Part shown: positions 43,291 through 63,104 of the stretch, piece after piece | How positions within the stretch are numbered: the stretch's first letter is position 1 | Layout: each line of letters opens with the position of its first letter | Assembly (NCBI RefSeq): GCF_011603255.1 | Contig: NZ_JAANCM010000011.1 | Coordinates: 1-64,000 of the forward strand | Direction: 5' to 3' | Source: Ferranicluibacter rubi | Lineage (GTDB): Bacteria; Pseudomonadota; Alphaproteobacteria; Rhizobiales; Rhizobiaceae | Length of the DNA stretch: 64,000 nt | Program-made: the position numbers and the translations under genes | Notes under the pieces: model-generated | Seen by the model: the letters and a program-made list of their open reading frames with translations, nothing else | Told to the model about the DNA's origin: nothing | Databases searched by the model: none

Positions 43291-43309
43291 CGAAATACTC
43301 CTAAATGAA

Positions 43310-48762: not shown

Positions 48763-50586
48763 ATGCCGCATCGCAGGGACGCTCGCAACAAGCAGACAGG
48801 GCGCGCTACCAGCGTGGCAGCGGGGGATCTGGAGGAGGAGCAGACGCTTGGCCAGCAGCTGCGCATGATGCAGCAGGCCTTCGTCGCCTCGCCGTCGCGG
48901 CGCATCATCCTGTTGCTGGCTGCCGGGCTCCTTGCGGTCATCATCGCCATTGCCATCGGGCAGATCTTTCTCAATCGCTGGTACAAGCCGTTCTACGACA
49001 CGCTGGAGCGGCGCGACCTGCCGGCCTTTCTCGGGCAATTCGTCGTCTTTGGGCAGATTGCCGGCGTCATCCTCGTCCTCAACGTCATCCAGACCTGGCT
49101 TGGACAGTGGATCAAGATCAAGCTACGGGAAGGGCTGACGCGGGATTTGATCACCGAGTGGATGAAGCCGACGCGGGCGTTCCGCCTTGCCAATGCCGGC
49201 TCGCTCGGCATCAATCCGGACCAGCGCATCCACGAGGATGCGCGGCATCTGACCGATCTGACGGCCGGTCTCGGCATAGGGCTCGTGCAGTCCGGCATCC
49301 TGCTCGTCAGCTTCATCGGCGTGCTCTGGTCGCTGTCGGCCGGTTTCGTCTTCCGGTTCCAGGGCTATGCCGTGGCCATTCCCGGCTACATGGTCTGGGC
49401 CGCCATCCTCTATGCCGGCATCGCCTCGTGGCTCAGCTGGCTGGTCGGACGGCCGCTCGTGAAGCTGAACGGCGAGCACTACCAGCGCGAGGCAGCGCTC
49501 CGGTTCTCGCTCATGCGCGTCAACGAACATATCGAGGCGGTGTCGCTCTCGGGCAGCGAGGCGAACGAGAAGCGCCGGATCGAGCGCGATCTTGCCTCGG
49601 TGCTGGAGATCAGCCGCGGCCTGATGTTTGCGATGACCCGGCTGACCTGGGTGACGGCCGGTTACGGCTGGGTCACGGTCATCGCGCCGATCGTCATCGC
49701 GGCGCCGGTGTTCTTCGCCGGGAACCTTTCCTTCGGCGGGCTGATGATGGCCGTTGGCGCCTTCAACCAGGTGCATGCGTCGCTGCGCTGGTTCGTCGAC
49801 AATATCGAAGCGGTGGCCGACTGGCGCGCGACGCTGCTGCGGGTTTCCGCTTTCCGCTCGGCCATGCTGATGACGGACGAGCGCTACGAGAACGACAAGC
49901 GGATCGTCTATGCCGAGCCGGGTTCCGGCAGCATCGTCATGGACGACCTTGCGGTGGCGTCGCCGTCCGGCAGCGTCAAGCTCGCCGATACGCATGTCGA
50001 GATCCTGCCCGGAGACCGGGTGCTGATCACGGCCCGAACCGACGTCGACAAGAGTTCGTTCTTCCGCGCGGTGACGGGCCTCTGGCCCTGGGGGCGCGGG
50101 CGGCTCGCCCTGCCGCCGTCGGACAGCATGGCGTTCATTCCGCGCACACCTTATTTTCCGCCCGGCAGCGTGGCGGAAACCTTGATCCATCCCGCCGCAC
50201 CCGACCGGTTCCCGCGCGAGCAGCTCGCCTCGGTATTGACGCGCCTCGGGCTCGATCGTTTCGTGGCAGGGCTCGATCAACCGTTGCAGTCGCAGGTGAA
50301 GCCCACGGAGGCGGAACTGCGCCTGCTCGCCATCGCCCGGCTCGGCCTGCACAAGCCGCGCTGGATCGTGGTCGAGGAGGTGCTCGATACGCTCGATCCG
50401 GAAACCTACCAGCGTGTCGTCACCTTCTTCACCGTGGAGACGGCGAAGGCTGCCATTATCAATATCGGGCGGATGCAGCCGAACGACACGTTCTTCAAGC
50501 GCGTGCTGCACCTGGAAAACGACCCTGGCGGCAAGACGCTGAAGCGCCTGCAACCGCGAAGCCTGAGGACGCGTCGCGACGGTTAG
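48763..50586 (+). CDS. SbmA/YddA-like ABC protein with degenerate ATPase domain
   Basis: A 607-residue protein. Residues about 45-370 form an ABC_membrane_2 transmembrane domain (IILLLAAGLLAVIIAIAIGQ; RHLTDLTAGLGIGLVQSG) as in SbmA/BacA and YddA. The C-terminal domain (about 388-585) has the shape of a nucleotide-binding domain, but the motifs are broken: Walker A reads TARTDVDKSS (423-432) instead of GxxGxGKS, the signature reads TEAELRLLAIAR (515-526) and the H-loop His is absent (INIGRMQ). It may work without ATP hydrolysis, for example with a proton gradient as SbmA does. It may take up peptides. Divergent from the GT2 gene by 242 bp. Confidence 0.82.
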   Translation: MPHRRDARNKQTGRATSVAAGDLEEEQTLGQQLRMMQQAFVASPSRRIILLLAAGLLAVIIAIAIGQIFLNRWYKPFYDTLERRDLPAFLGQFVVFGQIAGVILVLNVIQTWLGQWIKIKLREGLTRDLITEWMKPTRAFRLANAGSLGINPDQRIHEDARHLTDLTAGLGIGLVQSGILLVSFIGVLWSLSAGFVFRFQGYAVAIPGYMVWAAILYAGIASWLSWLVGRPLVKLNGEHYQREAALRFSLMRVNEHIEAVSLSGSEANEKRRIERDLASVLEISRGLMFAMTRLTWVTAGYGWVTVIAPIVIAAPVFFAGNLSFGGLMMAVGAFNQVHASLRWFVDNIEAVADWRATLLRVSAFRSAMLMTDERYENDKRIVYAEPGSGSIVMDDLAVASPSGSVKLADTHVEILPGDRVLITARTDVDKSSFFRAVTGLWPWGRGRLALPPSDSMAFIPRTPYFPPGSVAETLIHPAAPDRFPREQLASVLTRLGLDRFVAGLDQPLQSQVKPTEAELRLLAIARLGLHKPRWIVVEEVLDTLDPETYQRVVTFFTVETAKAAIINIGRMQPNDTFFKRVLHLENDPGGKTLKRLQPRSLRTRRDG

Positions 50587-50704: not shown

Positions 50705-51619
50705 GTGGAAGGACCGCTGCAACATCGCTTTTCCCTCGTCGTGGCGACCCTCGGGCGGGTCGAAGAGATCGAGCGCCTTCTGATGTCGCTCGTCGCGCAG
50801 CAGCGTCGGGATCTCGAGGTTCTGTTCGTCGATCAGAACGGTGACGACCGGCTCGTGCCGGTTCTCGCGCGATTTTCCCAGGAGATCGACATCGTCCATA
50901 TCCGATCAGTGGAAAAGGGCGTCTGTCGCGCGCGAAACCGCGGTGCGGCGCAGTCGCGCGGCATCTGGCTGATGTTTCCGGACGACGACTGCTGGTACCC
51001 TGGCGATTTCTTCCGGACGCTGGAGGCGCTGATGGCGTTAGAGCCGGCCGACATCTATAGCGGCCGGCCGACGGCGCCCGATGGACGGACGATCATGGGG
51101 AGCTTTGCCACGGAGACGACGGTGCTGACACGGGACACGGTCTGGAATACGCTGATGGAGTGGATCGTGGTCGTGCGGAAACCGGTGTTCGAGGCCGCAG
51201 GCGGGTTCGATGCGGCTCTGGGGCCGGGGTCGGGCACGATCTGGGGCGCACACGAGGTCCAGGATATGGTGCTCAAATGCCTCGAGACCGGCGCCAGCGG
51301 ACAGTATTATCCGACACTCACGGCCCATCATCCCGAAGACCATGGCGATCGGCGGACGCGCGAGAATGCGCAGAAGATGTATCGCTACGGGGCGGGGCTC
51401 GGCTATGTACTGCGGCGGCACGGTTTTTCGATGGGGCGGTTTCTGCCGGAAATCCTTCGTCCGCTGGCCGGTATCCTCGTTTACGGTCTCAAGGGTGATA
51501 GGGCGATGGCCCGCCGCTCGCGACATTTGCTTCTCGGTCGCCTGCAAGGGTGGCGTACCGCGCCTGCCCGAAATACGGCGCCGCAGACCGTTCTCAAACC
51601 CGTCTCGCCCAAGGTCTGA
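50705..51619 (+). CDS. GT2 family glycosyltransferase
   Basis: A 304-residue GT-A transferase: FSLVVATLGRVEEIERLL, VLFVDQNGDD, CRARNRGAAQSRG, and the DDD motif in LMFPDDDCWYPGDF. The second half (WGAHEVQDMVLKCLE) holds the ED-type acceptor motif. GTG start at 50705 with GGGAGG six bases upstream. It probably works on an exopolysaccharide with the hydrolase encoded 101 bp downstream. Donor unknown. Confidence 0.86.
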   Translation: MEGPLQHRFSLVVATLGRVEEIERLLMSLVAQQRRDLEVLFVDQNGDDRLVPVLARFSQEIDIVHIRSVEKGVCRARNRGAAQSRGIWLMFPDDDCWYPGDFFRTLEALMALEPADIYSGRPTAPDGRTIMGSFATETTVLTRDTVWNTLMEWIVVVRKPVFEAAGGFDAALGPGSGTIWGAHEVQDMVLKCLETGASGQYYPTLTAHHPEDHGDRRTRENAQKMYRYGAGLGYVLRRHGFSMGRFLPEILRPLAGILVYGLKGDRAMARRSRHLLLGRLQGWRTAPARNTAPQTVLKPVSPKV

Positions 51620-51720
51620 AGGGTCGGATCTTCATGAGAATGATCGAATATTAACCGCTGCCGCCTTAGATTGACGAGCCGCGCACGCTTGTGCGTCCAA
51701 CCAACGGAACCGAATGCGCG

Positions 51721-53514
51721 ATGACTGCCGTCAGCATGGATGCCATCCAGATGCCCCGTCCTGCCGGTCGGCCGGTCACGTTCGAGAACACCGTTGGCCT
51801 CTTCACGCCGGCACAAGGAGTGATAACGCGCGCCGCCGTTCTGTTTATCAGCCCCTGGGGGCTGGAAGAGCTTTGCGTGCATAAGGCGTGGCGCGAGCTT
51901 GCCGATAGTCTTGCCGATGCCGGCATGGCCAGCCTGCGCTACGATCATCCCGGCACAGGTGATGCTCTAGACCTGTCCGAACCCTCAGGTCTCGAACCCT
52001 TCACGACGACAGCGCTGGCCGCTGCGCGATGCCTTCGCGATCTCACCGGGCTTGAACGTCTGGTGGTGGTGACGCAGGGGTTCGGATCGCTGTCGGTTCC
52101 GGACCTTCTGAAGGCCAATGCCCCCTCGCTTCGGTTTGCGGGCGTCGCGCTTCTCGCCCCTGTCACGAGCGGACGGCGGTATCTGCGCGAGCTTTCGCTC
52201 TGGGCAAAGGTCGTGGACGAAGGATTGGGCCTGCCGCCCGGTAGCGGCGGTCCAGGCACGTCCATCGCCGGTCTGGTGATGGAGGACAGCGTTGCCGCCG
52301 CCGTGCGCAGCGCGGATCCCAAGGCATTCAAGCCGGCGGGATCGACGCGTTTTTTCATCGCGGAACGGCCGCAATCGGATGCTGACGGTGCGCTGGCTGT
52401 TCAGTTGCAGACGGAGGGTGCCGATGTCACCCGGGTCGTCTTCGACGGCTATTCCGATCTCGTGTCGAACCCGACCATCGCCGAGACGCCTGTTGCCGTC
52501 TTCAAGGCCTTGACCAGCTGGATCCTCGGCCTCGATGCTTCTGAGCTCGAAAAGGGTGCCGGGCCGGGAGCGCCGTCTTCCGGCGTTCTCGACGGCGGCA
52601 GCTTCATCGAATGTCCCATGCGGTTCGGCGCCGGTGACCGATTGTTCGGTGTCCTCTGCACGCCGGCCGATGCCATTCCCGTGGGGACTGCCCTTTTGCT
52701 CGGTACCGGCTACGACCGGCAGTCCGGTTGGGCGCGCTCGACGGTCGAGACGGCGCGGATGCTGGCCGCATCCGGCATCGCCTCGTTCCGGTTCGACGCC
52801 GCCGGCATCGCCGACAGTCCGCCGGTGCCGGAGGGCGACCGACAGGTGCTCTATTCGCCCGGACAGATTTCCGATGTGCGCGCCGCGCTCGATCGCATCG
52901 AGGCCATCGGCCTGCCCAACCCCGTCTTCGTCGGCCGCTGCAGCGGTGCTTACCTTGCGTTCAAAGCGGCACTGGCCGATCCGCGGTGCCGCGGGGTCAT
53001 TGCGATCAATATTCTGACCTTCGCCTGGGATCCGCGCGACGATGTGGATCAGATGATCCGCTACAATCCGCGCTCTCTCGACGACTACAAGCGACGCGCC
53101 CTGCGCATGGAGACGGCCTACCGGTTGATCTCCGGCAAGATCGACGTGCCGCGCGCCGCCGGCAATATCCTGAAGATCGTCGCCCGCCGCGTCTCGCGGA
53201 CGGCAGCGCCGGTGCTGGGTTCGCTGTCGGTCGAAGCAAGGTTGCGCAATGGGGTGCACCGCGCGTTCCGCCAGTTGCGCGAACGTCATGTGCCCGTTTC
53301 GCTCGTCTACAGCGAAGGTGATATCGGCCTTGCGCGGCTGACCCAGCATTTCGGCCGGGACGGCCAGCTTCTGGCACGGTATCCGAACGTTTCGCGCATC
53401 CTGCTCGCCAATGCCGACCACAACGTCACACCGCCCAAGGCGCGGCGCGAACTGCGGGAGCATATCCGCGACACGATCCTCGCGATCGTGTCGGGCACGT
53501 GCAAGGCATCGTGA
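51721..53514 (+). CDS. Tandem alpha/beta hydrolase, second domain with Cys nucleophile
   Basis: A 597-residue protein of two fused alpha/beta hydrolase folds. In domain one (about 20-275) the nucleophile elbow reads TQGFGSLS with Gly122 where Ser or Cys is needed, so it looks inactive. In domain two (about 295-595) the elbow is VGRCSGAY with Cys407, and Asp534 (YSEGDIG) and His567 (NADHNVT) complete a dienelactone-hydrolase-like Cys-Asp-His triad. The ATG at 51721 is preferred; a GTG at 51691 is possible. Likely to act on an acyl ester or thioester of a surface glycan, judging by its neighbours. Confidence 0.7.
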   Translation: MTAVSMDAIQMPRPAGRPVTFENTVGLFTPAQGVITRAAVLFISPWGLEELCVHKAWRELADSLADAGMASLRYDHPGTGDALDLSEPSGLEPFTTTALAAARCLRDLTGLERLVVVTQGFGSLSVPDLLKANAPSLRFAGVALLAPVTSGRRYLRELSLWAKVVDEGLGLPPGSGGPGTSIAGLVMEDSVAAAVRSADPKAFKPAGSTRFFIAERPQSDADGALAVQLQTEGADVTRVVFDGYSDLVSNPTIAETPVAVFKALTSWILGLDASELEKGAGPGAPSSGVLDGGSFIECPMRFGAGDRLFGVLCTPADAIPVGTALLLGTGYDRQSGWARSTVETARMLAASGIASFRFDAAGIADSPPVPEGDRQVLYSPGQISDVRAALDRIEAIGLPNPVFVGRCSGAYLAFKAALADPRCRGVIAINILTFAWDPRDDVDQMIRYNPRSLDDYKRRALRMETAYRLISGKIDVPRAAGNILKIVARRVSRTAAPVLGSLSVEARLRNGVHRAFRQLRERHVPVSLVYSEGDIGLARLTQHFGRDGQLLARYPNVSRILLANADHNVTPPKARRELREHIRDTILAIVSGTCKAS

Positions 53515-53555: not shown

Positions 53556-56036
53556 TCAGAAGGGAACGGGGAGGGCGCTGCCGATGGCGGCGACGTCGCC
53601 TGAGGGACGCGCCGGCTTCTCCCTCGTCTCCGGCTGTGTCGATTGCGGCACCAGCTGGATGCGGCGGGCGGGGCCGGGCGCGAGGTGGAACCAGTTGTCG
53701 GACGGCAGGAAGCCGGGGCAGGCGATGTGCACCGACAGGGCGAGGCGATCGGTCGCGATGTCGAGCGTGAAGCCCGCATCGTTCTCGATCAGGGCGGCCG
53801 TCAGCGTCGCATCGTGGATCGCCGGGCGGCGGCCGAGCGGGAAGTGGAAGGCTTCGGCGATCGGTTCGTTCGATTCCGCCGAGATGAGGCGGGCGACCGT
53901 TACGTTGTGCTGTGGGCCGGCGAAGCGGTAGGCATAGGTCGTATCGAAGAAGGCGCCGAAGAGATCGGTTGCGGGCAGACGGAGCCTCGATCGAGCAGGC
54001 AGGACGACGTCTCGGCGGCCGGAGATGACGGGCTGGCGGCCCGCGCGCAGGCAGGTGAGTTCGAGCCGCACCGCTTCGTCGCGCGCCGTGTCGTTGACGA
54101 GATGGATGTCGAGGCCGTTCGTTCCCTCGTCGAGGAGAAGCACCTGGACCGGGCGGAAGGCGCGGCGGACGGCGTGCCAGACGGGCTTCGGCAGGCCCGT
54201 GGCATCGACGAGACCCCAGCCGGCGCCGGCCAAGAGGTCCTGAAACGTCCAGACGAGCGCGCCGCCGCAGGCGGAGCCCGCGCGGCGCCATTCCGAGAAC
54301 GTCGCCTCGATCACCTCGCCGGTCACTGCGCGGGAGAGGTCGAGATAGCGCGCGGGATCTTCCCGCCGCAGGCGGGCCGGATCGAGATCGTAGAGGCGGC
54401 CGAGATAGTGGTCGCGCGTATCCTCGAAATCCCACGAGGCATCGCGGTCGCGGGGAACGCGGGCCTTCCAGCGGGGATCGTGGACGGGGGCGACAGGCAG
54501 GTGCGCATCGAGCGTCACTTGCTCCGGCACGTTGGCAAAGGCGAGGCATTCGGCAGCAAAGCTGGCATCGGCGCGGCGCGCATCCTCGAGCGGTCGTTCA
54601 TAGGCGCCGACGCCGTAGTAATGGCCGATGCCGGCATTCGGCGAGAAGGGCTGCGTGCCGCCGAAGGGGGAATTGGGGACGTAGGCGATGTCCGGCCGCT
54701 CGTTGGCCACGATGCCCGGCAGGACCGTTTCGGTGAGAGGGCCGGCCCAGACCCGCTCGGCGAGACCCATCATCGCGGCCTGCTGGTACATCTCGCTGCC
54801 GCCGCAGAAGACGGCGAGCGACGGCGAGGCGCGTGTCGACCGCAGCAGCGTCTCGACTTCTTCGCGCAGCAGGGCGGCAAAGGCCTCGTCGTCGGCCGGA
54901 TAGTCGAAATTGGCCAGCATGGCGTCCTGCCAGACCATCAGCCCGAGTTCGTCGCAGAGCGCGAAGAAGGCCTGCGTTTCGTAGGTCATGGTGCCGCCGA
55001 TGCGGATCATGTTCATGTTGGCGTCTGCCGCAAGCCGCAGCCAGGGCGCATAGGCTTCCCGTGTTCCCGGTAAGCCTACGATATCCGCATTGGTCCAGAC
55101 GGCGCCGCGGCAGAAGATGTCGATGCCGTTGACCTTCAGGGCGAAACGCGTGCCCTCGGCGCCGCGGTCGATCTCGACCCGGCGGAAGCCGGTGCGGCCG
55201 AGGACGAGACGGTCCTCACCCATGAGAATCTCGACTTCGTGAAGCACCGGTTCGCCATGGCTGCGTGGCCACCAGGGTGCGATGCCGGGCAGGGAAAGCG
55301 TGGCTTCCGCGCGGCCGTTTTCAACGATAACGGTAGTCTCGTGGCTGGCACAGCGCAGCCTGATTGGCCCTGTTGCTGTCGTCTCGAAGCGGACGTTCAG
55401 GTGCCCGGTGCCGTCGGCATCGAGCGAGGCGGCGATATCGACGGCGCTGACGGAAGCCTGTTCGGCGCGGCGGAGTGTGACGGGGCGATAGGGGCCGGCG
55501 GCATGGATCTCCGGGCACCAACCGGGCATGTAGCCGAGCGCCGTGGTGCGCACGCCGCGCAGGCCTGCGGGAACGATCATCTTGGTGCGCCAGCGCGCCC
55601 GCTTCAGCTTGCGGGACAGATGCGGCAGGAGCGCCCGGCAGCAGATGGCGAGGCGGTCGTTGCCGCTGAGGTGCACGGGGACGTTGTGGCTCATAAACAT
55701 GCTGTGCGAGGACAGGATCTTCTCGCCATTGAGAAAGACGTCGGCAATGGTCGCCAGGCCTTCGAAACGGAGAACGGCCTCACCCGGCGGTTCATCCGCG
55801 ATGACGGCGAGGAACCAGGCATCCTGCCCGTTCAGCGGGTGGGGGGCCGTGCGGTCGAATTGGCCCGCCGCTTCCAGGGCTCCGGCGACGGTGCCGGGAA
55901 CGATCGCGGGGATGCCGTCATCGTCAGCCAAGGTCGATGGGTCGGCGTGGAGCCCCGGGGGCGTCAGGACGAGGCGCCAGCCTTGCGTCAGGGGGCGTGC
56001 ATCCACGAGACGAAGGGGGGCGGGCAGCGTTGTCAT
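53556..56036 (-). CDS. GH2 beta-mannosidase-like glycoside hydrolase
   Basis: An 826-residue multidomain hydrolase of the GH2 mannosidase type. The N-terminal sugar-binding jelly roll includes VFLNGEKILSSHSMF, then Ig-like domain, then a TIM barrel with NMNMIRIGGTMTYETQAFFA. The candidate acid/base is the Glu of FCGGSEMYQQ (about 414), and candidate nucleophile the Glu of SFAAECLAF (about 493). It has no signal peptide, so it appears cytoplasmic. It is the last gene of the carrier-protein operon, 41 bp after DUF1839. The link between a mannosidase and an amino acid carrier system suggests a glycan acceptor or product. Confidence 0.85.
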   Translation of the reverse strand: MTTLPAPLRLVDARPLTQGWRLVLTPPGLHADPSTLADDDGIPAIVPGTVAGALEAAGQFDRTAPHPLNGQDAWFLAVIADEPPGEAVLRFEGLATIADVFLNGEKILSSHSMFMSHNVPVHLSGNDRLAICCRALLPHLSRKLKRARWRTKMIVPAGLRGVRTTALGYMPGWCPEIHAAGPYRPVTLRRAEQASVSAVDIAASLDADGTGHLNVRFETTATGPIRLRCASHETTVIVENGRAEATLSLPGIAPWWPRSHGEPVLHEVEILMGEDRLVLGRTGFRRVEIDRGAEGTRFALKVNGIDIFCRGAVWTNADIVGLPGTREAYAPWLRLAADANMNMIRIGGTMTYETQAFFALCDELGLMVWQDAMLANFDYPADDEAFAALLREEVETLLRSTRASPSLAVFCGGSEMYQQAAMMGLAERVWAGPLTETVLPGIVANERPDIAYVPNSPFGGTQPFSPNAGIGHYYGVGAYERPLEDARRADASFAAECLAFANVPEQVTLDAHLPVAPVHDPRWKARVPRDRDASWDFEDTRDHYLGRLYDLDPARLRREDPARYLDLSRAVTGEVIEATFSEWRRAGSACGGALVWTFQDLLAGAGWGLVDATGLPKPVWHAVRRAFRPVQVLLLDEGTNGLDIHLVNDTARDEAVRLELTCLRAGRQPVISGRRDVVLPARSRLRLPATDLFGAFFDTTYAYRFAGPQHNVTVARLISAESNEPIAEAFHFPLGRRPAIHDATLTAALIENDAGFTLDIATDRLALSVHIACPGFLPSDNWFHLAPGPARRIQLVPQSTQPETREKPARPSGDVAAIGSALPVPF

Positions 56037-56077
56037 GATGTCCTGAGGTTTCCTGTCTGTCGGCCGCGAATGTGGGA

Positions 56078-57046
56078 TCAGCCGAGCTTTGCCGCCAGCC
56101 CCTGCATCAGAGCGTCCCAGGCCTCTGCGGCCGGCGTCAGCGTGCCGGCCAGCGCATCGAACTTCTTGCGGTTGACCGCGCGGGCGACCTGGAACTGCAC
56201 GGTCTTGCCGACCTCGGAGATCTTCAGGGCCGCGAGGCGTTCCGCCTCATAGCGACCGTCCGGCGAAAGCCATCCGAGATGGGTGGCGAGCAGCTCGTAA
56301 TTCGCGCCGAACTGGCGCAGCGTGTTGAAGGCGTATTTGTGGAAGAAGTCGAAGTCGCGGCTGGCCAGCGCCTCCACCTGCGCCGGGAACACGGCGGCGA
56401 AGGCCCGAAACGGATTGTCTTGCGGGCGGCGGGCGAAGTGAAACGCGAGCAGCGCCTGCGCCTTCTCTAGGATCCGCGCCTCGTCCGGCAGCACGGTCGG
56501 CAGCTTGGCGAATTCGGTATAGGGCAGGAGCGGCAGGGCCTCCGGGTGCCCAAGCGTCTGGAACAGGCCGTCGAAATCGTCGCCTTCCAGATGGAAGAAG
56601 CCGCCATTGTGGAAATAGTCGAGGCTACGGGAGGCCACGTCCAGCCGGTTGATGCCGATCGTCGTCTTGCCGTGCTCGCGGCCATAGGCGACGCCCGCGG
56701 TGTCGGGCATGAAGAAGCTGTCCATCTCGACGAGGCAGAGACGGCCGCGGGCGATCTGGGTCTGCAGATGCCGCTCGACCTTGTCGAAGATGGCGAGTTC
56801 CGTGCAGGTTATGCCGTAGAGAGCTTCGAGGTCTTCCAGTGGCACCTTGAAGAAGGTGAACTGGTCGCCCTCGAAGTCTTGGCCCAGCGTGAAGCCGAGC
56901 ATGGCTTCCGGCGGCAGGCCCAGCGTGTTCAAGACCTCGATCCAGAGATCGATGTAGCAGTTGGTCTCCGGCCACATGCGCTCTTTGTCGTGGAGCGCAT
57001 GTGGGCGATAGGTCTCGGGCGCGATGCCGGGGAAGACGGCTTGCAT
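56078..57046 (-). CDS. DUF1839 family protein
   Basis: A 322-residue protein with no catalytic family I can name. Notable conserved-looking stretches are WPETNCYIDLWIEVLNTLG, GQDFEGDQFTFFKVPLEDLE, VEMDSFFMPDTAGVAYGRE and YFHNGGFFHLEGDDFDGLF. The length and motifs fit DUF1839, known mainly from its association with amino acid:carrier protein ligases. The DSFFMPDT and HLEGDD acidic/His segments could be an active site. It lies 7 bp after the ligase, so probably receives or transfers the aminoacyl group. Confidence 0.8.
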   Translation of the reverse strand: MQAVFPGIAPETYRPHALHDKERMWPETNCYIDLWIEVLNTLGLPPEAMLGFTLGQDFEGDQFTFFKVPLEDLEALYGITCTELAIFDKVERHLQTQIARGRLCLVEMDSFFMPDTAGVAYGREHGKTTIGINRLDVASRSLDYFHNGGFFHLEGDDFDGLFQTLGHPEALPLLPYTEFAKLPTVLPDEARILEKAQALLAFHFARRPQDNPFRAFAAVFPAQVEALASRDFDFFHKYAFNTLRQFGANYELLATHLGWLSPDGRYEAERLAALKISEVGKTVQFQVARAVNRKKFDALAGTLTPAAEAWDALMQGLAAKLG

Positions 57047-57053
57047 GGTTCGA

Positions 57054-57962
57054 TCAGCCCCAGAGCGTCTTGCGGACGTGTGCCGGCCACTCGTTGACGT
57101 CGAGGCCGTGGTGCTTGAAGAGCGCCAGCGCGATGCGCTCCAGGCCGAAGCCGACGCAGGCGGTGTGCGCCGTTTCGCCGTCGTCCGTCGTCAGGCCCCA
57201 GGTCTTGCCGAAATGGTCCTGATGGTAGTTGAAGCTCATGCAGGCGGTGGGGCCGGCATTGGCGTTGACGGGGATCAGCAGCTCGAACTTGAGGTTCTGG
57301 TTGCGCTGGTTGTTCTTGTACATCTTACCGGCGCGGCCGAAGAAGGGGTCGTTGGCGACGTCGATCTCGACGGGCAGGCCGACCGATTCCATCAGCTTGG
57401 TGCCGCGCTCCATCCAATCCTGACGGAAGGCGACGACGTCCGTTGGCTTGCCCATGCGGACATATTCGCGCATGCGGAACAGCTGCATGCGGGTCGGCTC
57501 TTTCGACGGCTCATGACGGAAGCAGTAGGACTGCAGGTCGAAGAGACCGCCACCGACGGGCAGGGCGCCACGCTTGGCGATCGTCGGGTAGAGCGGGTAG
57601 CAGGCCGCGGGCGTCAGCACGATGTCGGTCGCCTGCTGCTGGCCGGTCCAGTCCTTGCCTTCCTCCATGCAGGTCAAGAGGCTGACATGGTCGAGCTCGC
57701 AGCCGCAGAAGGAGTGGATGGTGCCGGCGAGCTGCGGGAAGCTCTTCATATAGCCCGAGCCTTCGAAATGGGCGCGGTTCATGCCGGGCGGGAAGCGGAT
57801 GGTCTCCGGCTTGTCCACACCGCCGAGACCGTCGATGACGGCTTCGAAGCGGGTGATGACGTCTTCGAACGCACCGCTGCGGCCATAGAGGCCATCGACG
57901 CCGGTGTCGATGAGGAGGCCGGCCGCAAACAGCCGGTCGAGCAAGGGAAGCTGCATATCCAT
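57054..57962 (-). CDS. Amino acid:[carrier protein] ligase (SerRS-like)
   Basis: A 302-residue class II aminoacyl-tRNA synthetase-like catalytic core without the tRNA-binding arm. Motif 2 is seen in [16 protein letters not shown] and motif 3 in [16 protein letters not shown]. Zinc ligands Cys121, Glu166 and Cys269 keep the same spacing as the characterised Bradyrhizobium enzyme Bll0957 (shifted by ten). Such enzymes activate glycine or alanine with ATP and load it on a carrier protein instead of tRNA. The carrier is encoded two genes upstream in the same operon. The specific amino acid cannot be read from the sequence. Confidence 0.9.
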
Positions 57963-57968
57963 GGTCGG

Positions 57969-59150
57969 TTACCCCAGAAGGTTGGTTTCAATCTTGTTCA
58001 CGAGAAGCATGTTCGACGTATTGGCGAGAATGCGGTCGTTGGAGATCATCAGCTGCGCCGACTGGGCGTCGCGCAGGTGGCGTCCGAGCGAGAACGGGGT
58101 GCCGTTCTTGTAGCCCATGATGCCGGTGATCTGCATGGCGTGGTCGATGATCTCGGGCACGGTCCGGGAGACCGCGATCTTCACGTTGTTCATCGCGACG
58201 GAGAAGCCCATGGAGGAGAGCAGTTCCGGCTCGGCAAGGGCTGACTCATAGCGGGCAAGGCCGGCCGTGACGTTGGCGCGGACCTGTTGCAGGAGGCTGG
58301 AGGCTTCCGCGAGGTGCAGTGCGCCGGGCGGTGTCTGGCCGGGGCTCTTGCGGGCTGCGGCGCGCACGAACGCCTGGGCGCGGGTCATCGCATTGACCGC
58401 GATACCGTACCAGACGCCGCCCCAGAGCAGGTGCGAGCTTGCCAGCATCGACTGTGCCGCGATTTCCGCGAAGGGCTTGGGCAGGATCTGCTCCTTCGGG
58501 GCTTCGCCCTTGAAGAGATAGCCTTCCGAACAGGTGCCGCGCATGCCGAGCGTGTCCCATTCGTTGGTGCGCTCCAGCGTGTACTGGTCCTTCGTGAACA
58601 CGGTCATGACCTGGTCGGTCGTCACGGCATCCGGATGGGCGCGGGAGGTGATGAGGATCGCATCGGCGTGGCGGCCATAGGAAATGACGGTCGCATCCTT
58701 CTGGAGCCGGCAGGTGTCGCCATTGATCTCGATGGCGCAGATCGAGTTGCGCATATTGCCGCCGATGCCGCCTTCCGTCGTCGCCGAGGCGATGAGGAGC
58801 TGCTCGTCGACGATGCGGCGCATGAAGCTCTGGTGCCAGGGGCTGTCGATGCCGTGGGACACGAGGCTCGACAGCTTGATGTGGTGCATGGCAAAGACCA
58901 TGGCGGAGGCGGAGCAGGCCTGGCCGAGAACGGTGCAGACTTCCGCGATCTGCGCGGTCGTCGCGCCCTCTCCGCCCAGGGTGACGGGGATCTGGATCGA
59001 CAGCAGTCGTTCCGAGATCAGGGCATCCGCCGCTTCACGCGGGAAGCGGGCATTGCGGTCCACGTCGTCGGCGTGCTGGCCGGCGATGCCGGCCACGCGG
59101 CGGGCGCGCTCCAGCAGCGTCGACCCTTGAGCGTTGAGGGCGACGTCCAT
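57969..59150 (-). CDS. Acyl-CoA dehydrogenase-like flavoprotein
   Basis: A 393-residue member of the acyl-CoA dehydrogenase fold: PVTLGGEGATTAQIAEVC and ASATTEGGIGGNMRNS bind FAD, the middle strand domain includes NEWDTLGMRGTCSEG, and the helical C-domain ends with MQITGIMGYKNGTPFSLGRH. In carrier-protein pathways such enzymes oxidise the tethered aminoacyl or acyl group rather than a CoA ester. The ATG shares a base with the carrier protein stop, and the ligase starts 6 bp after its end. The substrate here is probably the aminoacyl-carrier. Confidence 0.85.
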   Translation of the reverse strand: MDVALNAQGSTLLERARRVAGIAGQHADDVDRNARFPREAADALISERLLSIQIPVTLGGEGATTAQIAEVCTVLGQACSASAMVFAMHHIKLSSLVSHGIDSPWHQSFMRRIVDEQLLIASATTEGGIGGNMRNSICAIEINGDTCRLQKDATVISYGRHADAILITSRAHPDAVTTDQVMTVFTKDQYTLERTNEWDTLGMRGTCSEGYLFKGEAPKEQILPKPFAEIAAQSMLASSHLLWGGVWYGIAVNAMTRAQAFVRAAARKSPGQTPPGALHLAEASSLLQQVRANVTAGLARYESALAEPELLSSMGFSVAMNNVKIAVSRTVPEIIDHAMQITGIMGYKNGTPFSLGRHLRDAQSAQLMISNDRILANTSNMLLVNKIETNLLG

Positions 59151-59398
59151 CAGGCGGCTTCTTTCCCGGCCACCAGCTGGTTGACCGTCTGCTCGATGAT
59201 AGCGATCGTGGAGAAGGACTTGCGGTTGAGCAGGTTGTCGGGAAACTCGACGTCAAAAGTGTCTTCGAGCGCCAGCATCAGCTGCACCGAGCCATGCGAC
59301 GACATGCCGGCCGCATAGAGGTCCGCATCGTCGTCCAGACCGGCTGCCGAAGGCAGGGAGGCATATTGGGCAAGCATCTCACGGATCTGGGTCTTCAC
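59150..59398 (-). CDS. Acyl/aminoacyl carrier protein
   Basis: An 82-residue carrier protein. The phosphopantetheine attachment is Ser34 in AAGMSSHGSVQL, followed by the helix LALEDTFDVEFPDNLL. Starts with GTG at 59398 (MKTQIREMLAQY), eight bases after AAAGGAG; the frame is open further upstream without support. It leads the operon and is coupled to the flavoprotein. It should accept an amino acid from the SerRS-like ligase after phosphopantetheinylation by a transferase encoded elsewhere. Confidence 0.9.
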   Translation of the reverse strand: MKTQIREMLAQYASLPSAAGLDDDADLYAAGMSSHGSVQLMLALEDTFDVEFPDNLLNRKSFSTIAIIEQTVNQLVAGKEAA

Positions 59399-59718
59399 GG
59401 CGTCACTCCTTTGCAGCGCGGGGCCTGTGGCTCTGATGACGCAGGGATAGCGGTTGCAGGCTAAAAACGGGCTAAGGAATATAGCTAAAGTTTCCTCAAG
59501 CCACGCCTGATATGGCCCGACGCCCGGGACGTCCGTCCTTAAGTCCCTGCAAATGCTGTGCTTCGCATCAATGTAAGTCACGACGTTCAGGGGTTGTTAA
59601 CCATAAGCTGTCAATTCTTCGGATCGAGAACCTCGTGCGGGCTGCAGGTCATTGTCCGAACCCGCCGAGCCGAGATGTGAGCGCGGACAAAACAACCTGG
59701 CGTGGATATGGAAGCCCT
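59399..59718. other. Divergent intergenic region, carrier-protein operon / exopolysaccharide genes
   Basis: 320 bp with no gene. It contains TTAACCAT at 59597-59604, the classic half of a CtrA box, but no second TTAA at the right distance. Short AT-rich stretches at 59460-59490 and 59590-59620 are probable promoters for the two divergent operons. No palindromic operator was recognised. Confidence 0.5.
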
Positions 59719-61803
59719 ATGGACATCGACGTCTTTCAACTTCCGTCGATCGTGATGCGCCGCATCGGCATCGTCATCGTGACGGCGCTGATCTTCGGTG
59801 GCCTGGGGTTTGCCTTCGTTCTCAGCCAGCCGGCCGTGTTCCGTGCCTCCACCCAGATCCTGCTCGACCCCGAGCGGCTTGCCGCCGTCGGCCAGTCCGC
59901 CGGCGATACCGCCGCACCGGCGCAGGCGCAGCAGGCGATCGACAGCCAGATCTATGTCATGCAATCCTTCAGCGTTCTCTCCGAGGCTGCGCGCAAGCTC
60001 GCATTGCAGGAGGATCCTTTCTTTCAGGCAAAGGTGGGTCTGATCGGCCGGCTTCTCGGCCGGTCGCCGTCGCTCCCCGTTTCGGAAGAGGCGGCAGCGG
60101 CGGGCGCCGCAGCGACGCTCGCGCAGAACCTCATTATCGCGCGCGCCGACCAGTCGCTGGTCTTCACCATCACGGCTCAGCATCCGAACGCGGCGCGCGC
60201 GGCCGAGATCGCCAATACCGTCTCTGCGATCTACCTGGAAAAGGCGAACAAGATCGGGTCCGACAAGAGCCTCAAGGCCAGCATGAGCCTTCAGGTCGAG
60301 GCCGAAGAGCTGCGCAAGCGGTTGCTCGAAGCCGAAGACAAGGTCGTCAAGTTCCGCACGCAGAACGGTCTGATCAGCACCGGCGAGAAGGGCCTCGTGA
60401 CCGACCAGCAACTCGAGGCTGTGACGCAGCAGCTCGGCAGTGCCCGCGCCGCCCTCGAGCAGCAGCAGATCAATTACAATCAGGTTCGCACGTTGACGAC
60501 GGGCGATCTCGCCTCGGGCGCGATCCCCGAAGCGCTGCAGCAGACGTCGGTGACGACGTTGCGCACGCGCTATGCGCAGACGCTCGACCGGCTGGCGGAG
60601 CTGCAGACCAGTCTCGGCAGCCGCCATCCGCAGCTCCAGACCGCGCAGGCGCAGGCCGAAAGCATGCGGCGGGCGCTGGAGTCGGAATTGAAGCGGGTTC
60701 AGGACTCGGTGCGCAATACCTATGAGCGCAGCAAGGCCAATGTCGCGGCGCTCGAAACGCGCTTCGCCGCGCTTCGCAACGCCAATGGCGACAGCGGCGA
60801 TGCGCGCACGACCCTTGCGCAACTGCAGAGCGAGGCCGATGCGATCCGCGGCGTCTACACCTCATTCGTCACGCGCTCGGAGGAGTTGAGCCGCCAGTAC
60901 GATATCGGTTCGGGCAATTCCCGCATCATCTCGGAGGCCCTGCCGCCGATAAAGACGACGCGCGCCTCCGCCCTGCTGGTCGCCATCGCCGGCGTCCTGT
61001 TCGGGGCGGCGGCCGGATCGGCCATCGCCGTCGGGCTGGACCTGCTCGACGGGCGGGTGACCTCCGACCGGCAGATCGTCGATACGCTCGGCGTTCCCGT
61101 CATCGCGCGGATCGCGGCTCGGCAGACGCGGGGAACATCGGATGTGCCGGACGATGGCTGGCCTTCCGGGCGTTCGCGGCGCAACGTCGGTCTCGTCGCG
61201 CGGATGAAGCGCCGCCTGCCGTTTTCCGGCAAGGCGGCTGCACGGTCGCATGCCGCAGAACGCCAACGCGAGGCGGGCGTCACGCGCTCGGCCTATGTGC
61301 TGACCGATGCCGTTGCGGCCCTGCCGGCCCGGATCGTGTTTCTTTCGCCCGGCATGGAAAAGCCGGATGAAACGCTGGTGGGCGACATCGCGCTCGCGCT
61401 GGCCGATACAGGTGCGGCCGTCGATATCGCAGCGGCATCCGTGCCTGCCTCGTCTCTGCTGGCCGGCACGCTGAAGCGCATGCAGATGGGCGGTGTCCCT
61501 GCTTTTGAAAGCGTCAGTTACCGCCGTCTCGATCGCCATGCCATGCCGCGGCAGCGCAGCCGCGCTTCCGGCTCGCTCCTGTCGGCGGCAGTCAAGCCGG
61601 CACCCGCCGACTTTTCCGTGGTCGATGCGACCGGCGAAGAGAATGCCGCGCGGTTGATGGCCTTCGTGAAGGATAGCGACGCGATCGCCATCGTCATCCG
61701 GCCCGGCCGGGTGGGTCGCGCCGACCTCAAGGATCTCGCACAGACGCTCGGCCCCTGGAGAACCAAACTCGTCGGCGTCGTGATCGTTGAGGCGGTCGCC
61801 TGA
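59719..61803 (+). CDS. Wzz/ExoP-like polysaccharide co-polymerase with dead kinase domain
   Basis: A 694-residue inner-membrane protein. TM1 is at about residues 14-36 (IGIVIVTALIFGGLGFAFVL), a long periplasmic coiled-coil region (about 40-410) includes FRASTQILLDPERLA and repeated Gln/Glu-rich helices, and TM2 is at about 415-437 (LLVAIAGVLFGAAAGSAIAV). The C-terminal cytoplasmic region would be a tyrosine kinase (BY-kinase) but the Walker A site reads FLSPGMEKPDET, without GxxGxGKS, so it should not bind ATP normally. Such proteins set chain length in Wzx/Wzy export. ATG 59719 is the first codon of the membrane domain start. Confidence 0.85.
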   Translation: MDIDVFQLPSIVMRRIGIVIVTALIFGGLGFAFVLSQPAVFRASTQILLDPERLAAVGQSAGDTAAPAQAQQAIDSQIYVMQSFSVLSEAARKLALQEDPFFQAKVGLIGRLLGRSPSLPVSEEAAAAGAAATLAQNLIIARADQSLVFTITAQHPNAARAAEIANTVSAIYLEKANKIGSDKSLKASMSLQVEAEELRKRLLEAEDKVVKFRTQNGLISTGEKGLVTDQQLEAVTQQLGSARAALEQQQINYNQVRTLTTGDLASGAIPEALQQTSVTTLRTRYAQTLDRLAELQTSLGSRHPQLQTAQAQAESMRRALESELKRVQDSVRNTYERSKANVAALETRFAALRNANGDSGDARTTLAQLQSEADAIRGVYTSFVTRSEELSRQYDIGSGNSRIISEALPPIKTTRASALLVAIAGVLFGAAAGSAIAVGLDLLDGRVTSDRQIVDTLGVPVIARIAARQTRGTSDVPDDGWPSGRSRRNVGLVARMKRRLPFSGKAAARSHAAERQREAGVTRSAYVLTDAVAALPARIVFLSPGMEKPDETLVGDIALALADTGAAVDIAAASVPASSLLAGTLKRMQMGGVPAFESVSYRRLDRHAMPRQRSRASGSLLSAAVKPAPADFSVVDATGEENAARLMAFVKDSDAIAIVIRPGRVGRADLKDLAQTLGPWRTKLVGVVIVEAVA

Positions 61804-63104
61804 TGAGCGTTATTCAGGACGTGTCCGCGCGATATGCCCTGCCGGTCGGCGGTCTCGCGGCCAAGAATGACGACGCCTGGCGGGGGCTCTACACGCGGCT
61901 TGCGGCCTTCAGCGTCATCGGCGGCCTCGTCTTCAACGCGCTTCTCTGCCTCGTCAACACACGGGTGATGCGGGTCTCCGACGGGCATGTGATGATGTCG
62001 GAAATGGTGCTGGTCGGCTGCGTCTTCATCGTGGCGCTCGGGTGGCGCACGGCACCCTACATGCTGCTGGCCGTCTATATCTCCTACATGATCTTCCTCT
62101 TCACCATGCGCGGCGCACCGGACCTCAAGGCCGTGCGCGACATCCTCATCCCCATCGGATTCTATTTCGCCGGCCGGACGCTGCAGGACTTGAAGCTGGC
62201 GGATCGGCTGGTCTTCATCTCCTCGGCTATCGTGGTGGCTGTCGGCCTGTTCGAGTACATGGCGCTCGACGTCTACATCTCCTTCTTCAACGTCATCGGT
62301 TATTATCTCGCCCGCGGCAGCGTCACCGTCGATCAGCTCTACGGGCAGACGACCGGCCTCTTCATCAGCGGCATGCGGCCGAGCGCACGCACCATTCTGC
62401 CGTTTCTCGGCATGCACCGCGTGTCTTCGGTCTTTCTGGAGCCGGTTTCCGTCGGCAATTTCGGGGCGATCGTCTATGGCTGGTGCCTCTTCCGGCCGAC
62501 CATGCGCCTGCGCTTCGTGACGCTCTTTCTCGCCCTTACGGTCATCGCGCTCGGCGATGCGCGGTTCGGGCTCTATACCTGCATCCTGATGACGCTGCTT
62601 CTGCCGGTCTACCGCTTCATGCCGCGCTTGGCCTGGTACGTGCTGCCGTTCATCATGCTGTCGGTGCTCGCCTATTACGGCATCCAGTCGGGAACGCAGG
62701 GCGGGCCGAACGATATCGGCGGGCGGTTTCAGGTGACGGCGCATCTCCTCACCTCGCTCGACCTACGCGTGGTGTTCGGCGCCCAGACGACGACGCAGTT
62801 CACGGCGGATTCGGGGCTTGCCTATACGCTGACGAAGTTCGGCCTGTTCGGCTTCATGGGGCTATGGGGCCTGCTCGTCTTCGCGCCGCTCAACAGCGTG
62901 AAGGCCCGCACTTTCCACGGCATGGTCATCGTCTATCTGCTGCTGCTGATGATCATCAGCGACAGCGGCTACTCCATCAAGACCGCGGGACTGCTGTGGT
63001 TCCTGTTCGGCACCATTTCGGTGCTCGACGATGCGGCGCTCGGTCGCAAGCCGCGAGACCCGCGGCCCGCAGTGACGGGTGGCAGCAGCCTCAGCGCGAC
63101 CTGA
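61803..63104 (+). CDS. Polysaccharide polymerase-like integral membrane protein
   Basis: A 433-residue membrane protein with about ten to twelve hydrophobic segments (FSVIGGLVFNALLCLV; YMLLAVYISYMIFLF; AWYVLPFIMLSVLAYYG) and a periplasmic loop including GMHRVSSVFLEPVSVGNFGA, a pattern of Wzy/O-antigen ligase type proteins. It starts on the shared base of the TGATG stop/start with the co-polymerase gene, so the two are coupled. It probably polymerises the repeat unit of the exopolysaccharide. The final part overlaps the convergent GH5 gene by 14 bp. No single motif is decisive. Confidence 0.7.
   Translation: MSVIQDVSARYALPVGGLAAKNDDAWRGLYTRLAAFSVIGGLVFNALLCLVNTRVMRVSDGHVMMSEMVLVGCVFIVALGWRTAPYMLLAVYISYMIFLFTMRGAPDLKAVRDILIPIGFYFAGRTLQDLKLADRLVFISSAIVVAVGLFEYMALDVYISFFNVIGYYLARGSVTVDQLYGQTTGLFISGMRPSARTILPFLGMHRVSSVFLEPVSVGNFGAIVYGWCLFRPTMRLRFVTLFLALTVIALGDARFGLYTCILMTLLLPVYRFMPRLAWYVLPFIMLSVLAYYGIQSGTQGGPNDIGGRFQVTAHLLTSLDLRVVFGAQTTTQFTADSGLAYTLTKFGLFGFMGLWGLLVFAPLNSVKARTFHGMVIVYLLLLMIISDSGYSIKTAGLLWFLFGTISVLDDAALGRKPRDPRPAVTGGSSLSAT

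What the first reader, a model, noticed from the sequence alone, without database searches (positions are those of the whole stretch)
53556..59398. Amino acid:carrier-protein operon joined to a beta-mannosidase
Five minus-strand genes follow each other tightly: carrier protein (Ser34), acyl-CoA dehydrogenase-like flavoprotein (1-base overlap), SerRS-like ligase (6-bp gap), DUF1839 (7-bp gap), GH2 enzyme (41-bp gap). From established work on Bll0957-type ligases, these activate an amino acid on a carrier protein, and no product is agreed. The flavoprotein suggests the tethered amino acid is oxidised. DUF1839 may be the release or transfer enzyme. The GH2 gene and the adjacent exopolysaccharide cluster hint that the acceptor is a glycan. 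That last step is inference.
Basis: partly seen in the sequence, partly recalled or inferred. Interest (0 to 1): 0.85.

Follow-up and report, generated by a model that had tools for sequence, protein, structure and literature searches.

The report
Carrier-protein system decorating a bacterial sugar
A set of six proteins that travel together probably hangs a small amino acid on a carrier protein, alters it, and moves it onto a sugar that belongs to the slime coat of soil bacteria; this would give a job to an enzyme family that had none and can be tested directly.

Summary
All five genes, their spacings and Ser34 are exactly as reported. The operon is old: flavoprotein, ligase, DUF1839 and GH2 keep order and strand in all 80 loci kept by a scan, the carrier in 78, two contigs being cut; likewise in Azospirillum and Mycetohabitans. 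It is in 29 of 29 DUF1839 genomes tested and in 0 of 46 relatives without DUF1839. It resembles, below cut-off, exosortase-A hydrolases 2 and 1 fused, with the same degenerate first and Cys-Asp-His second active site; those follow a carrier gene. The DUF1839 model (pLDDT 92) matches over its length carrier-dependent papain-like enzymes AziU3, CtaG and CcbD; CcbD joins a carrier-bound amino acid to an amino sugar. Operon or hydrolase lies within 15 kb of a Wzz gene in 16 of 29 genomes, 0.65 expected. Best reading: aminoacyl-S-carrier, flavin oxidation, transfer to an exopolysaccharide sugar. The flavoprotein lacks the dehydrogenase Glu. Amino acid, oxidation product, acceptor and GH2 substrate are not shown.

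The parts
59150..59398 (-). aminoacyl carrier protein (82 aa), phosphopantetheine site Ser34
   Evidence: NF005480 99.6 bits, cut-off 72; closest solved chains 4h2w_C and 2jq4 (Atu2571); Ser34 in 100 of 100 loci with a match
57969..59150 (-). ACAD-fold flavoprotein (393 aa) without the catalytic Glu of acyl-CoA dehydrogenases (Ile369 in its place)
   Evidence: (alignment); Ile369 in 102 of 102 loci with a match
57054..57962 (-). amino acid--[carrier protein] ligase, SerRS-like (302 aa)
   Evidence: NF005479 510 bits, cut-off 357; Bll0957 chains, E 1e-95 and 7e-92; C121, E151, C269 in 102 of 102 loci with a match
56078..57046 (-). DUF1839, papain-like, proposed carrier-dependent condensing (transfer) enzyme, Cys30, His125, His146 (322 aa)
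   Evidence: 435 bits; model pLDDT 92; AziU3, CtaG, CcbD; Cys30 in 102 of 103 loci, His125 and His146 in 103 of 103, best-scoring copy per locus; PMC10318531, passages
53556..56036 (-). GH2, beta-mannosidase-like, no hydrophobic leader, candidate catalytic Glu415 and Glu496
   Evidence: 5n6u E 2e-50; alignments with 2vjx and 2je8; both Glu in 102 of 102 loci with a match
   Evidence: Cys417, Asp544, His577 in 68 of 68 loci with a match; same triad in 10 of 10 exosortase-A hydrolase 1 sequences; 29 of 29 DUF1839 genomes; 0 of 46 relatives without DUF1839
59512..61803 (+). divergent Wzz/GNVR exopolysaccharide chain-length protein (conserved part begins near 59719); context, not part of the operon
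   Evidence: (Wzz 34.1 bits, cut-off 25.5); linkage statistic
61803..63104 (+). membrane protein, Wzy-like by position and hydropathy only; context
   Evidence: no family match
50705..51619 (+). GT2 glycosyltransferase; context

Best explanation
The operon plus the convergent hydrolase gene is a six-protein, probably cytosolic, carrier-protein-dependent system that puts a small amino acid (or an oxidised form of it) on a sugar belonging to an exopolysaccharide. Step 1 (shown for homologues in the literature, not here): the SerRS-like ligase adenylates a small amino acid and loads it on Ser34-phosphopantetheine. Step 2 (inferred): the ACAD-fold flavoprotein changes the tethered aminoacyl group; lacking the Glu base, and with glycine (recalled as substrate of homologues) having no beta carbon, it more likely works at N or C-alpha than as a classical 2,3-dehydrogenase. 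Step 3 (inferred from fold and residues): DUF1839 takes the acyl group on Cys30 and hands it to an amino or hydroxyl group of a sugar, as CcbD does in celesticetin synthesis. Step 4 (inferred): the Cys417 hydrolase works on the same carrier or product (second transfer, or removal of wrong acyl groups), as its two unfused relatives may do in exosortase-A loci. Step 5 (inferred): GH2 trims or frees the sugar acceptor or a stalled product.
For: Fixed gene set: flavoprotein to GH2 in order and strand in 80 of 80 kept loci; 29 of 31 DUF1839 copies in searched genomes sit beside ligase and GH2, the other two being second copies. Co-occurrence: DUF1839 and hydrolase occur in the same 15 of 61 relatives (Fisher P 1.4e-14), and the hydrolase in a further 14 of 14 DUF1839 genomes. 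DUF1839 and ligase: 16 of 16 DUF1839 genomes among 398 have the ligase above cut-off, 12 genomes have the ligase alone (P 2.2e-21). Fold: the 18 best hits of the DUF1839 model are all AziU3, CtaG or CcbD, E 1.5e-7 to 2.5e-3, over about the whole length, then 0.05 for the next. CcbD: carrier-tethered proline moves to the enzyme Cys, then to the amino group of a thiooctose (PMC12945683, passages); CtaG is proposed as peptidyl transferase between carriers (PMC6772006, passage). Small amino acids: a review table lists such ligases adding Ala, Gly or Ser (PMC9437257, passages). Nucleophiles and Glu pair kept. Exopolysaccharide: Wzz within 15 kb of operon or hydrolase in 16 of 29 genomes, 10 of 20 genera (one genome each), expected 0.65 and 0.42, P 4e-20 and 1e-12; in G023, G165 and G249 it is a hydrolase on another contig than the operon that lies by Wzz. 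Exosortase-A loci: a carrier gene precedes the hydrolases in 3 of 3 loci fetched (L210 just under the Pfam cut-off), and carrier, hydrolase 2, hydrolase 1 follow in the order of the fusion in the 2 that my gene caller resolved; hydrolase 1 has the same Cys-Asp-His residues in 10 of 10 and hydrolase 2 the same degenerate elbow (G-L-R-x-G) in 2 of 2.
Against: No sequence-profile match of DUF1839 to any solved chain (E <= 1): the CcbD link rests on a predicted fold, with query TM-scores of 0.54-0.62 and rmsd of 5.2-7.7 A. PMC10318531 describes the DUF1839 triad as Cys-(Thr/Ser)-His, permuted against Cys-His-Glu of CcbD. No acceptor or glycosyltransferase is fixed in the operon. Thirteen of 29 genomes have no Wzz within 15 kb; many loci sit by efp-epmA-epmB or in a nif region instead. 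Four of 13 type B genomes, without the transfer module, are also near Wzz, so the linkage is not specific to that module. The four Burkholderiales-like genomes (G306, G312, G381, G385) have no Wzz match. In 25 of the 80 named loci no hydrolase was found within the stretch, and those genomes were not searched further. Another contig does not prove distance: in G005 and G312 the operon lies at a contig end. The G005 hydrolase matches in two pieces and the G088 one has an internal stop. Genera are related, so the P values are optimistic; the 15-kb limit was chosen after seeing distances.
Confidence: 0.5

Rival explanations
1. The product is a small diffusible aminoacyl-glycoside (a lincosamide-like natural product), not a polysaccharide. 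DUF1839 condenses the carrier-bound amino acid with a soluble amino sugar, GH2 removes a mannosyl group, and the exopolysaccharide neighbours are incidental or co-regulated.
For: CcbD and CtaG, the fold relatives, make small molecules; a crude hydropathy test shows no leader or membrane segment in the six window proteins; loci also occur on plasmids and beside unrelated genes.
Against: Wzz linkage in 10 of 20 genera and kinship of the hydrolase with the exosortase-A cassette; in the annotated loci read and the neighbour clustering I saw no exporter, resistance gene or sugar-tailoring set that is fixed beside the operon.
Confidence: 0.25
2. A thiotemplated oxidation pathway with release: the flavoprotein oxidises the tethered amino acid and DUF1839 (and the hydrolase) simply hydrolyse it off as a free metabolite; GH2 is a passenger.
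For: Type B loci keep flavoprotein and ligase (13 of 13) and mostly a carrier, without the other three, so oxidation on the carrier may be the core; papain-like and alpha/beta-hydrolase folds often hydrolyse.
Against: Two separate Cys-dependent acyl enzymes would be redundant for one hydrolysis; the nearest folds of DUF1839 are carrier-dependent biosynthetic enzymes; GH2 keeps both Glu residues in 102 of 102 loci.
Confidence: 0.15
3. A Dlt-like system: activated amino acid on a carrier is passed to a membrane O-acyltransferase and esterified on an envelope polymer; DUF1839 and the hydrolase only edit.
For: Same logic of ligase plus small carrier; the carrier scores weakly with DltC models (25.9 bits, cut-off 68). 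Genes annotated acyltransferase stand some way upstream in two plasmid loci.
Against: Ligase is SerRS-like, not a DltA-type AMP-binding enzyme; no membrane acyltransferase recurs across the loci in the neighbour clustering.
Confidence: 0.05

Closest known systems
Bll0957-type amino acid:[carrier protein] ligase with its carrier (PDB 3mey, 4h2w; 2jq4 Atu2571)
   Same: Ligase and carrier are clear members (NF005479 510 bits; NF005480 99.6 bits); an ACAD-fold gene stands by the ligase in both locus types.
   Different: Type B loci (ligase 48% identical in the one compared) lack DUF1839 in the genome, GH2 within the stretch and a full-length hydrolase (0 of 13; G392 has weak pieces). Here the ligase feeds a transfer module.
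CcbD/LmbD lincosamide condensing enzymes, CtaG (closthioamide), AziU3 (azinomycin)
   Same: Fold over about the full length, Cys at a helix start, carrier-bound donor (CcbD, CtaG); for CcbD an amino sugar acceptor.
   Different: No detectable sequence similarity; published triad order Cys-(Thr/Ser)-His instead of Cys-His-Glu; acceptor unknown. AziU3 papers were not read.
Exosortase-A cassette: TIGR03098 ligase, carrier, TIGR03101 and TIGR03100 hydrolases
   Same: Carrier, hydrolase 2, hydrolase 1 in the order of our fused gene (L209, L210); same Cys-Asp-His in hydrolase 1 (10 of 10) and same degenerate elbow in hydrolase 2.
   Different: Scores below the curated cut-offs (73 of 168 and 27 of 203 bits); two genes there, one here; AMP-binding ligase there (seen in L210), SerRS-like here.
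Prolyl-[carrier] dehydrogenases (PltE/RedW type, NF045652)
   Same: ACAD-fold enzyme beside an aminoacyl carrier.
   Different: 38 bits against a cut-off of 650; catalytic Glu missing here.
Beta-mannosidases of GH2 (5n6u, 2je8)
   Same: Domain plan and both candidate Glu residues.
   Different: Sequence is remote, no hydrophobic leader, substrate unknown.

Membership tests
amino acid:[carrier protein] ligase (Bll0957 family) | curated model NF005479 above cut-off; catalytic domain only, without tRNA-binding domain | tested here: met
   510.4 bits, cut-off 357, 302 aa covering model 19-317
amino acid:[carrier protein] ligase (Bll0957 family) | Zn ligands Cys, Glu, Cys (assignment recalled, from no call) | tested here: met
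   C121, E151, C269 in 102 of 102 loci with a match
amino acid:[carrier protein] ligase (Bll0957 family) | loads the local carrier, no tRNA aminoacylation | not testable with these tools
   needs an enzyme assay
aminoacyl carrier protein | PP-binding domain with modifiable Ser | tested here: met
   33.2 bits, cut-off 20.8; Ser34 in 100 of 100 loci with a match
DUF1839 (PF08893) | Pfam gathering score | tested here: met
   435.1 bits, cut-off 22.5
carrier-dependent papain-like enzymes (CcbD, CtaG, AziU3) | same fold over the whole length | tested here: met
   best 18 Foldseek hits are all of these three, prob 1.00, query TM 0.54-0.62, rmsd 5.2-7.7 A
carrier-dependent papain-like enzymes (CcbD, CtaG, AziU3) | sequence similarity | tested here: not met
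   no PDB chain at E <= 1 with profile A1
carrier-dependent papain-like enzymes (CcbD, CtaG, AziU3) | catalytic Cys with His and acidic partner in that order | tested here: inconclusive
   Cys30 in 102 of 103, His125 and His146 in 103 of 103 loci; PMC10318531 assigns Cys-(Thr/Ser)-His; no coordinates were available to superpose
carrier-dependent papain-like enzymes (CcbD, CtaG, AziU3) | forms an amide from a carrier-bound acyl group | not testable with these tools
   needs an enzyme assay
acyl-CoA dehydrogenase | ACAD domains | tested here: met
   PF00441 and PF02771 above cut-off, middle domain PF02770 below
acyl-CoA dehydrogenase | catalytic Glu in the IYEGT motif or at the isovaleryl-type site (site positions recalled) | tested here: not met
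   Ile369 in 102 of 102 loci; position 239 is Ser, Ala, Cys or Thr in 27 of 27 rows of A5
exosortase A-associated hydrolases 1 and 2 (TIGR03100, TIGR03101) | curated cut-offs | tested here: not met
   73.2 of 168.45 and 26.9 of 202.75 bits
exosortase A-associated hydrolases 1 and 2 (TIGR03100, TIGR03101) | active-site residues of hydrolase 1 | tested here: met
   Cys, Asp and His align in 6 of 6 fused proteins and 10 of 10 hydrolase 1 sequences
GH2 beta-mannosidase | GH2 N2 domain and two catalytic Glu | tested here: met
   44.1 bits, cut-off 27; E415, E496 in 102 of 102 loci with a match
GH2 beta-mannosidase | cleaves beta-mannosides | not testable with these tools
   needs an enzyme assay
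Dlt D-alanylation system | DltC model above cut-off, DltA-type ligase, membrane O-acyltransferase | tested here: not met
   DltC 25.9 of 68 bits; ligase is NF005479; no such membrane gene recurs in the neighbour clustering

The most novel reading that the evidence does not exclude
The system installs an oxidised glycyl group that I know from no bacterial polysaccharide: the flavoprotein, without the dehydrogenase base and with nitrososynthases and DszC-type monooxygenases among its nearest folds, N- or C-alpha-oxygenates glycyl-S-carrier, and DUF1839 fixes the reactive acyl group as an amide or ester on an exopolysaccharide sugar, with the Cys417 hydrolase finishing or proof-reading and GH2 recycling mis-acylated sugars. 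DUF1839 would then be a second natural kind of CcbD-like aminoacyl-to-sugar synthase, found in many root-associated bacteria.
Probability: 0.18. Interest if true: 0.85.

Novelty: new variant of a known kind. Interest (0 to 1): 0.7.

Why it matters
Amino acid:[carrier protein] ligases have solved structures but, to my knowledge, no agreed product. This work fixes the partner set (six proteins, not five), splits the ligases into a bare type and a type with a transfer module, and gives DUF1839 and the hydrolase a concrete, testable role. It also ties them to the exosortase-A hydrolases, whose own role is, to my knowledge, open. If right, it adds a new route for decorating bacterial exopolysaccharides in bacteria that live on roots and in nodules, and a new source of carrier-dependent aminoacyl-sugar synthases.

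Tried and rejected
Rejected: GH2 as a chance neighbour (fixed in 80 of 80 kept loci). Rejected: a beta-lysine link through the EpmA/EpmB-like genes that precede the carrier in many Rhizobium loci (EpmA-like gene in 42, radical-SAM gene in 39 of the 80 named loci; families checked in L108 only): neither was clustered near the operon in the other 24 loci compared. Rejected: the ATPase behind GH2 in the Rhizobium tropici group as a replacement for the sixth gene: in the one checked (L098) it is a MalK-type ATPase. Undecided: oxygenase or dehydrogenase for the flavoprotein; Foldseek puts TdsC first but mixes both kinds, and by profile the first three are dehydrogenases and DnmZ is fourth. Led nowhere: a search for papers holding Bll0957 with two other terms, Atu2571 and exosortase terms gave none; AziU3 gave three papers, listing seen only. 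The 2010 paper on these ligases is not held, so its content is recalled. DUF1839 is in one held paper, of which I saw passages. PMC4351081 on lincosamide synthetase: passages.

Counting notes: the 103-locus set is the 80 named loci, 8 plasmid loci and 15 fetched stretches (L057, a degraded copy, left out); counts are of loci with a tblastn match, best-scoring copy per locus. In L184 the second DUF1839 copy was the one counted; its operon copy lacks the Cys. In one search distances start from the ligase-DUF1839 span except in the window genome, and hydrolase places of G306, G312, G381 and G385 were not entered because they have no Wzz match; the Wzz searches covered all 29 DUF1839 and 13 type B genomes. 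Of three exosortase-A loci fetched, my gene caller did not resolve the hydrolases of L211. Neighbour gene calling is a simple own script that also picks up shadow frames.

Full report
1. What is there. Family scans agree with the naming. The carrier starts at a GTG at 59398 behind an AAAGGAG box; the closest solved chains are 4h2w_C and 2jq4 (Atu2571). The ligase is closest to Bll0957 chains.

2. Is the operon real? A DUF1839 profile scan of the species genome collection confirmed 525 relatives and kept the best 80, nearly all Rhizobiales by title. In all 80, flavoprotein, ligase, DUF1839 and GH2 lie in this order on one strand; the carrier is there in 78, the other two contigs being cut. The same order holds in Rhizobium, Shinella, Azospirillum and the betaproteobacterium Mycetohabitans, read from annotated plasmid records; one further record holds a decayed copy. 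Of 31 DUF1839 copies found in two genome samples, 29 stand beside ligase and GH2 and the other two are second copies. Among 61 relatives DUF1839 is in 15 and the ligase above cut-off in 16; among 398 genomes of the phylum DUF1839 is in 16 and the ligase above cut-off in 28, including all 16.

3. The missed sixth gene. Behind GH2, convergent in the window at 51691-53514 (+), lies a 607-aa tandem alpha/beta hydrolase. It directly follows GH2 on the same strand in Azospirillum and Mycetohabitans and is within about 10 kb in 55 of the 80 named loci; the other 25 were not searched further. Searched as a profile, it occurs in exactly the 15 relatives that have DUF1839 and in none of the other 46, and in 14 of 14 further DUF1839 genomes, against 0 of 12 ligase-only genomes, one of which has weak pieces. 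In G005 it matches in two pieces, in G088 with one internal stop. In seven genomes (G005, G017, G023, G046, G165, G249, G312) it is on another contig than the operon; for G005 and G312 this may be an assembly break. The second domain has G-x-C-x-G with Cys417, Asp544 and His577 kept in 68 of 68 loci with a match; the first domain has no Ser or Cys at the nucleophile elbow.

4. Two kinds of locus. Twelve ligase-only genomes of the phylum sample and one relative carry flavoprotein and ligase side by side (13 of 13), a divergent carrier-like gene detected in 8 of 13, and no DUF1839 or GH2 within the stretch. Flanking genes differ in the five loci looked at; one has methionine-salvage-type genes. 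The literature ligase Bll0957 probably belongs to this kind (inference from kinship and genome size); the window is of the other kind. So carrier, flavoprotein and ligase are the core; DUF1839, GH2 and the hydrolase are a module gained or lost together.

5. DUF1839. [quoted passage not shown] My model from 33 sequences has pLDDT 92. Its 18 best solved matches are all AziU3, CtaG and CcbD, E 1.5e-7 to 2.5e-3, about the whole length, query TM 0.54-0.62, rmsd 5.2-7.7 A; staphopain follows at 0.05. A review says that CcbD loads carrier-tethered proline on its Cys and that the amino group of a thiooctose then attacks (PMC12945683, passages); CtaG is proposed to transfer an acyl group from one carrier to a chain on another (PMC6772006, passage); AziU3 papers were not read. 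Cys30 is at a helix start and kept in 102 of 103 loci; His125 and His146 in 103 of 103. In two genomes (G312, G385) the operon copy has lost Cys30 but a second copy with the Cys is present, next door in G385 and on another contig in G312, as expected if a Cys enzyme is needed. Against: no sequence match to any solved chain.

6. The flavoprotein. Fold and profile neighbours mix dehydrogenases with oxygenases: TdsC is first by Foldseek, KijD3, DszC and MsuC are in the best 30 among many dehydrogenases; by profile three dehydrogenases come first and DnmZ fourth. The catalytic Glu position of acyl-CoA dehydrogenases is Ile369 in 102 of 102 loci, and the alternative site is never acidic in 27 of 27 rows (site positions recalled). 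I therefore do not file it as an acyl-CoA dehydrogenase. That glycine is the substrate of homologues is recalled; a review table lists Ala, Gly or Ser for such ligases (PMC9437257, passages).

7. GH2. Closest to beta-mannosidases (5n6u, 2je8); Glu415 and Glu496 align with the catalytic pair (recalled) and are kept in 102 of 102 loci with a match. A crude hydropathy test finds no leader in the window copy or in 103 family members (8 of 81 hydrolase members do exceed the same limit, possibly by wrong starts), so it probably acts in the cytosol.

8. Exopolysaccharide. In the window the operon lies between rmlA/D/B-like and GT2 genes on one side and Wzz and GH5 genes on the other. In 29 DUF1839 genomes, operon or hydrolase is within 15 kb of a Wzz-family match in 16, expected 0.65; with one genome per genus 10 of 20, expected 0.42 (matches). 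In G023, G165 and G249 it is a hydrolase on another contig than the operon that lies near Wzz. Against: 13 of 29 have none near; 4 of 13 type B genomes have one; the limit was chosen after seeing distances. Of five polysaccharide gene clusters tallied, at least one is near in 34 of the 80 named loci and in 3 of the 24 others.

9. The exosortase-A link. The sixth protein resembles hydrolases 2 and 1 of exosortase-A loci, below cut-off. A search for hydrolase 1 in 299 genomes gave 15 with a match above cut-off and 11 with only a weaker one; 8 of these 11 are DUF1839 genomes. In three exosortase-type loci fetched, a carrier gene precedes (34.7 and 30.4 bits; L210 20.5, just under the 20.8 cut-off); in L209 and L210 hydrolase 2 and hydrolase 1 follow in the order of our fusion, and the TIGR03098 ligase stands beside them in L210. 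Hydrolase 1 has Cys, Asp and His at the places of Cys417, Asp544 and His577 in 10 of 10, one having Ala-Ser-His-type surroundings or similar drift beside the His; hydrolase 2 has the same G-L-R-x-G elbow without nucleophile in 2 of 2 as most of our first domains.

10. Mechanism and grade. Shown by computation: the gene set, its co-occurrence, kept active-site residues, the DUF1839 fold match, the Wzz linkage. Inferred: every chemical step. I put 0.5 on carrier-dependent aminoacylation of an exopolysaccharide sugar, 0.25 on a small soluble glycoside, 0.15 on oxidation and release, 0.05 on a Dlt-like route.

11. Novelty. Each step has a known relative (Dlt, lincosamide synthetase, exosortase-A cassette), so this is a new variant of a known kind. 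Only one held paper names DUF1839, and I found none that describes the six-gene set; these searches cover open-licence papers only.

Noticed in passing
L108:4550-7387, and 42 (EpmA-like) / 39 (radical SAM) of the 80 named loci: EF-P, an EpmA-like class II synthetase and a radical-SAM (EpmB-like) gene lie just upstream of the carrier in many Rhizobium loci, so two synthetase paralogues outside translation proper are neighbours; families were checked in L108 only.
   Followed up: partly
window 48763-50586 (+): BacA/SbmA-like ABC transporter with its own ATPase part; a homologue is near the operon in 26 of 104 loci, in differing places.
   Followed up: no
L182, L183, L184 (G312, G385): Two DUF1839 copies per genome in two genomes of one genus; the operon copy has lost the catalytic Cys, the second copy keeps it, as if one were a partner or scaffold.
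   Followed up: partly
L050 (Rhizobium gallicum plasmid pRGM101a), 12322-18494: The operon stands directly behind a nif cluster on a conjugative plasmid, with a gene annotated as exopolysaccharide production repressor just upstream of the carrier.
   Followed up: no
L057 (Rhizobium leguminosarum Vaf10 plasmid unnamed3): Decayed copy: DUF1839 whole, ligase and GH2 only in part, with a large NRPS gene some 4 kb further on.
   Followed up: no
window 42415-45264 (-): rmlA, rmlD and rmlB-like dTDP-rhamnose genes close to the operon; rhamnose may be part of the local polysaccharide.
   Followed up: no
L209, L210, L211 and L199-L208: Exosortase-A hydrolase 1 has a Cys nucleophile (G-x-C-D) and hydrolase 2 an elbow without nucleophile, so the pair looks like one active and one inactive half beside a carrier.
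   Followed up: partly
L123 (MAG labelled Arenimonas): Carries a Rhizobiaceae-like operon (70% identical DUF1839) with Wzz and GT4 genes; may be a mis-binned contig.
   Followed up: no
L164, L165 and 15 further matches listed: A more distant ligase class (101-175 bits, below cut-off) in 16 genomes of other families of the phylum; context not examined.
   Followed up: no
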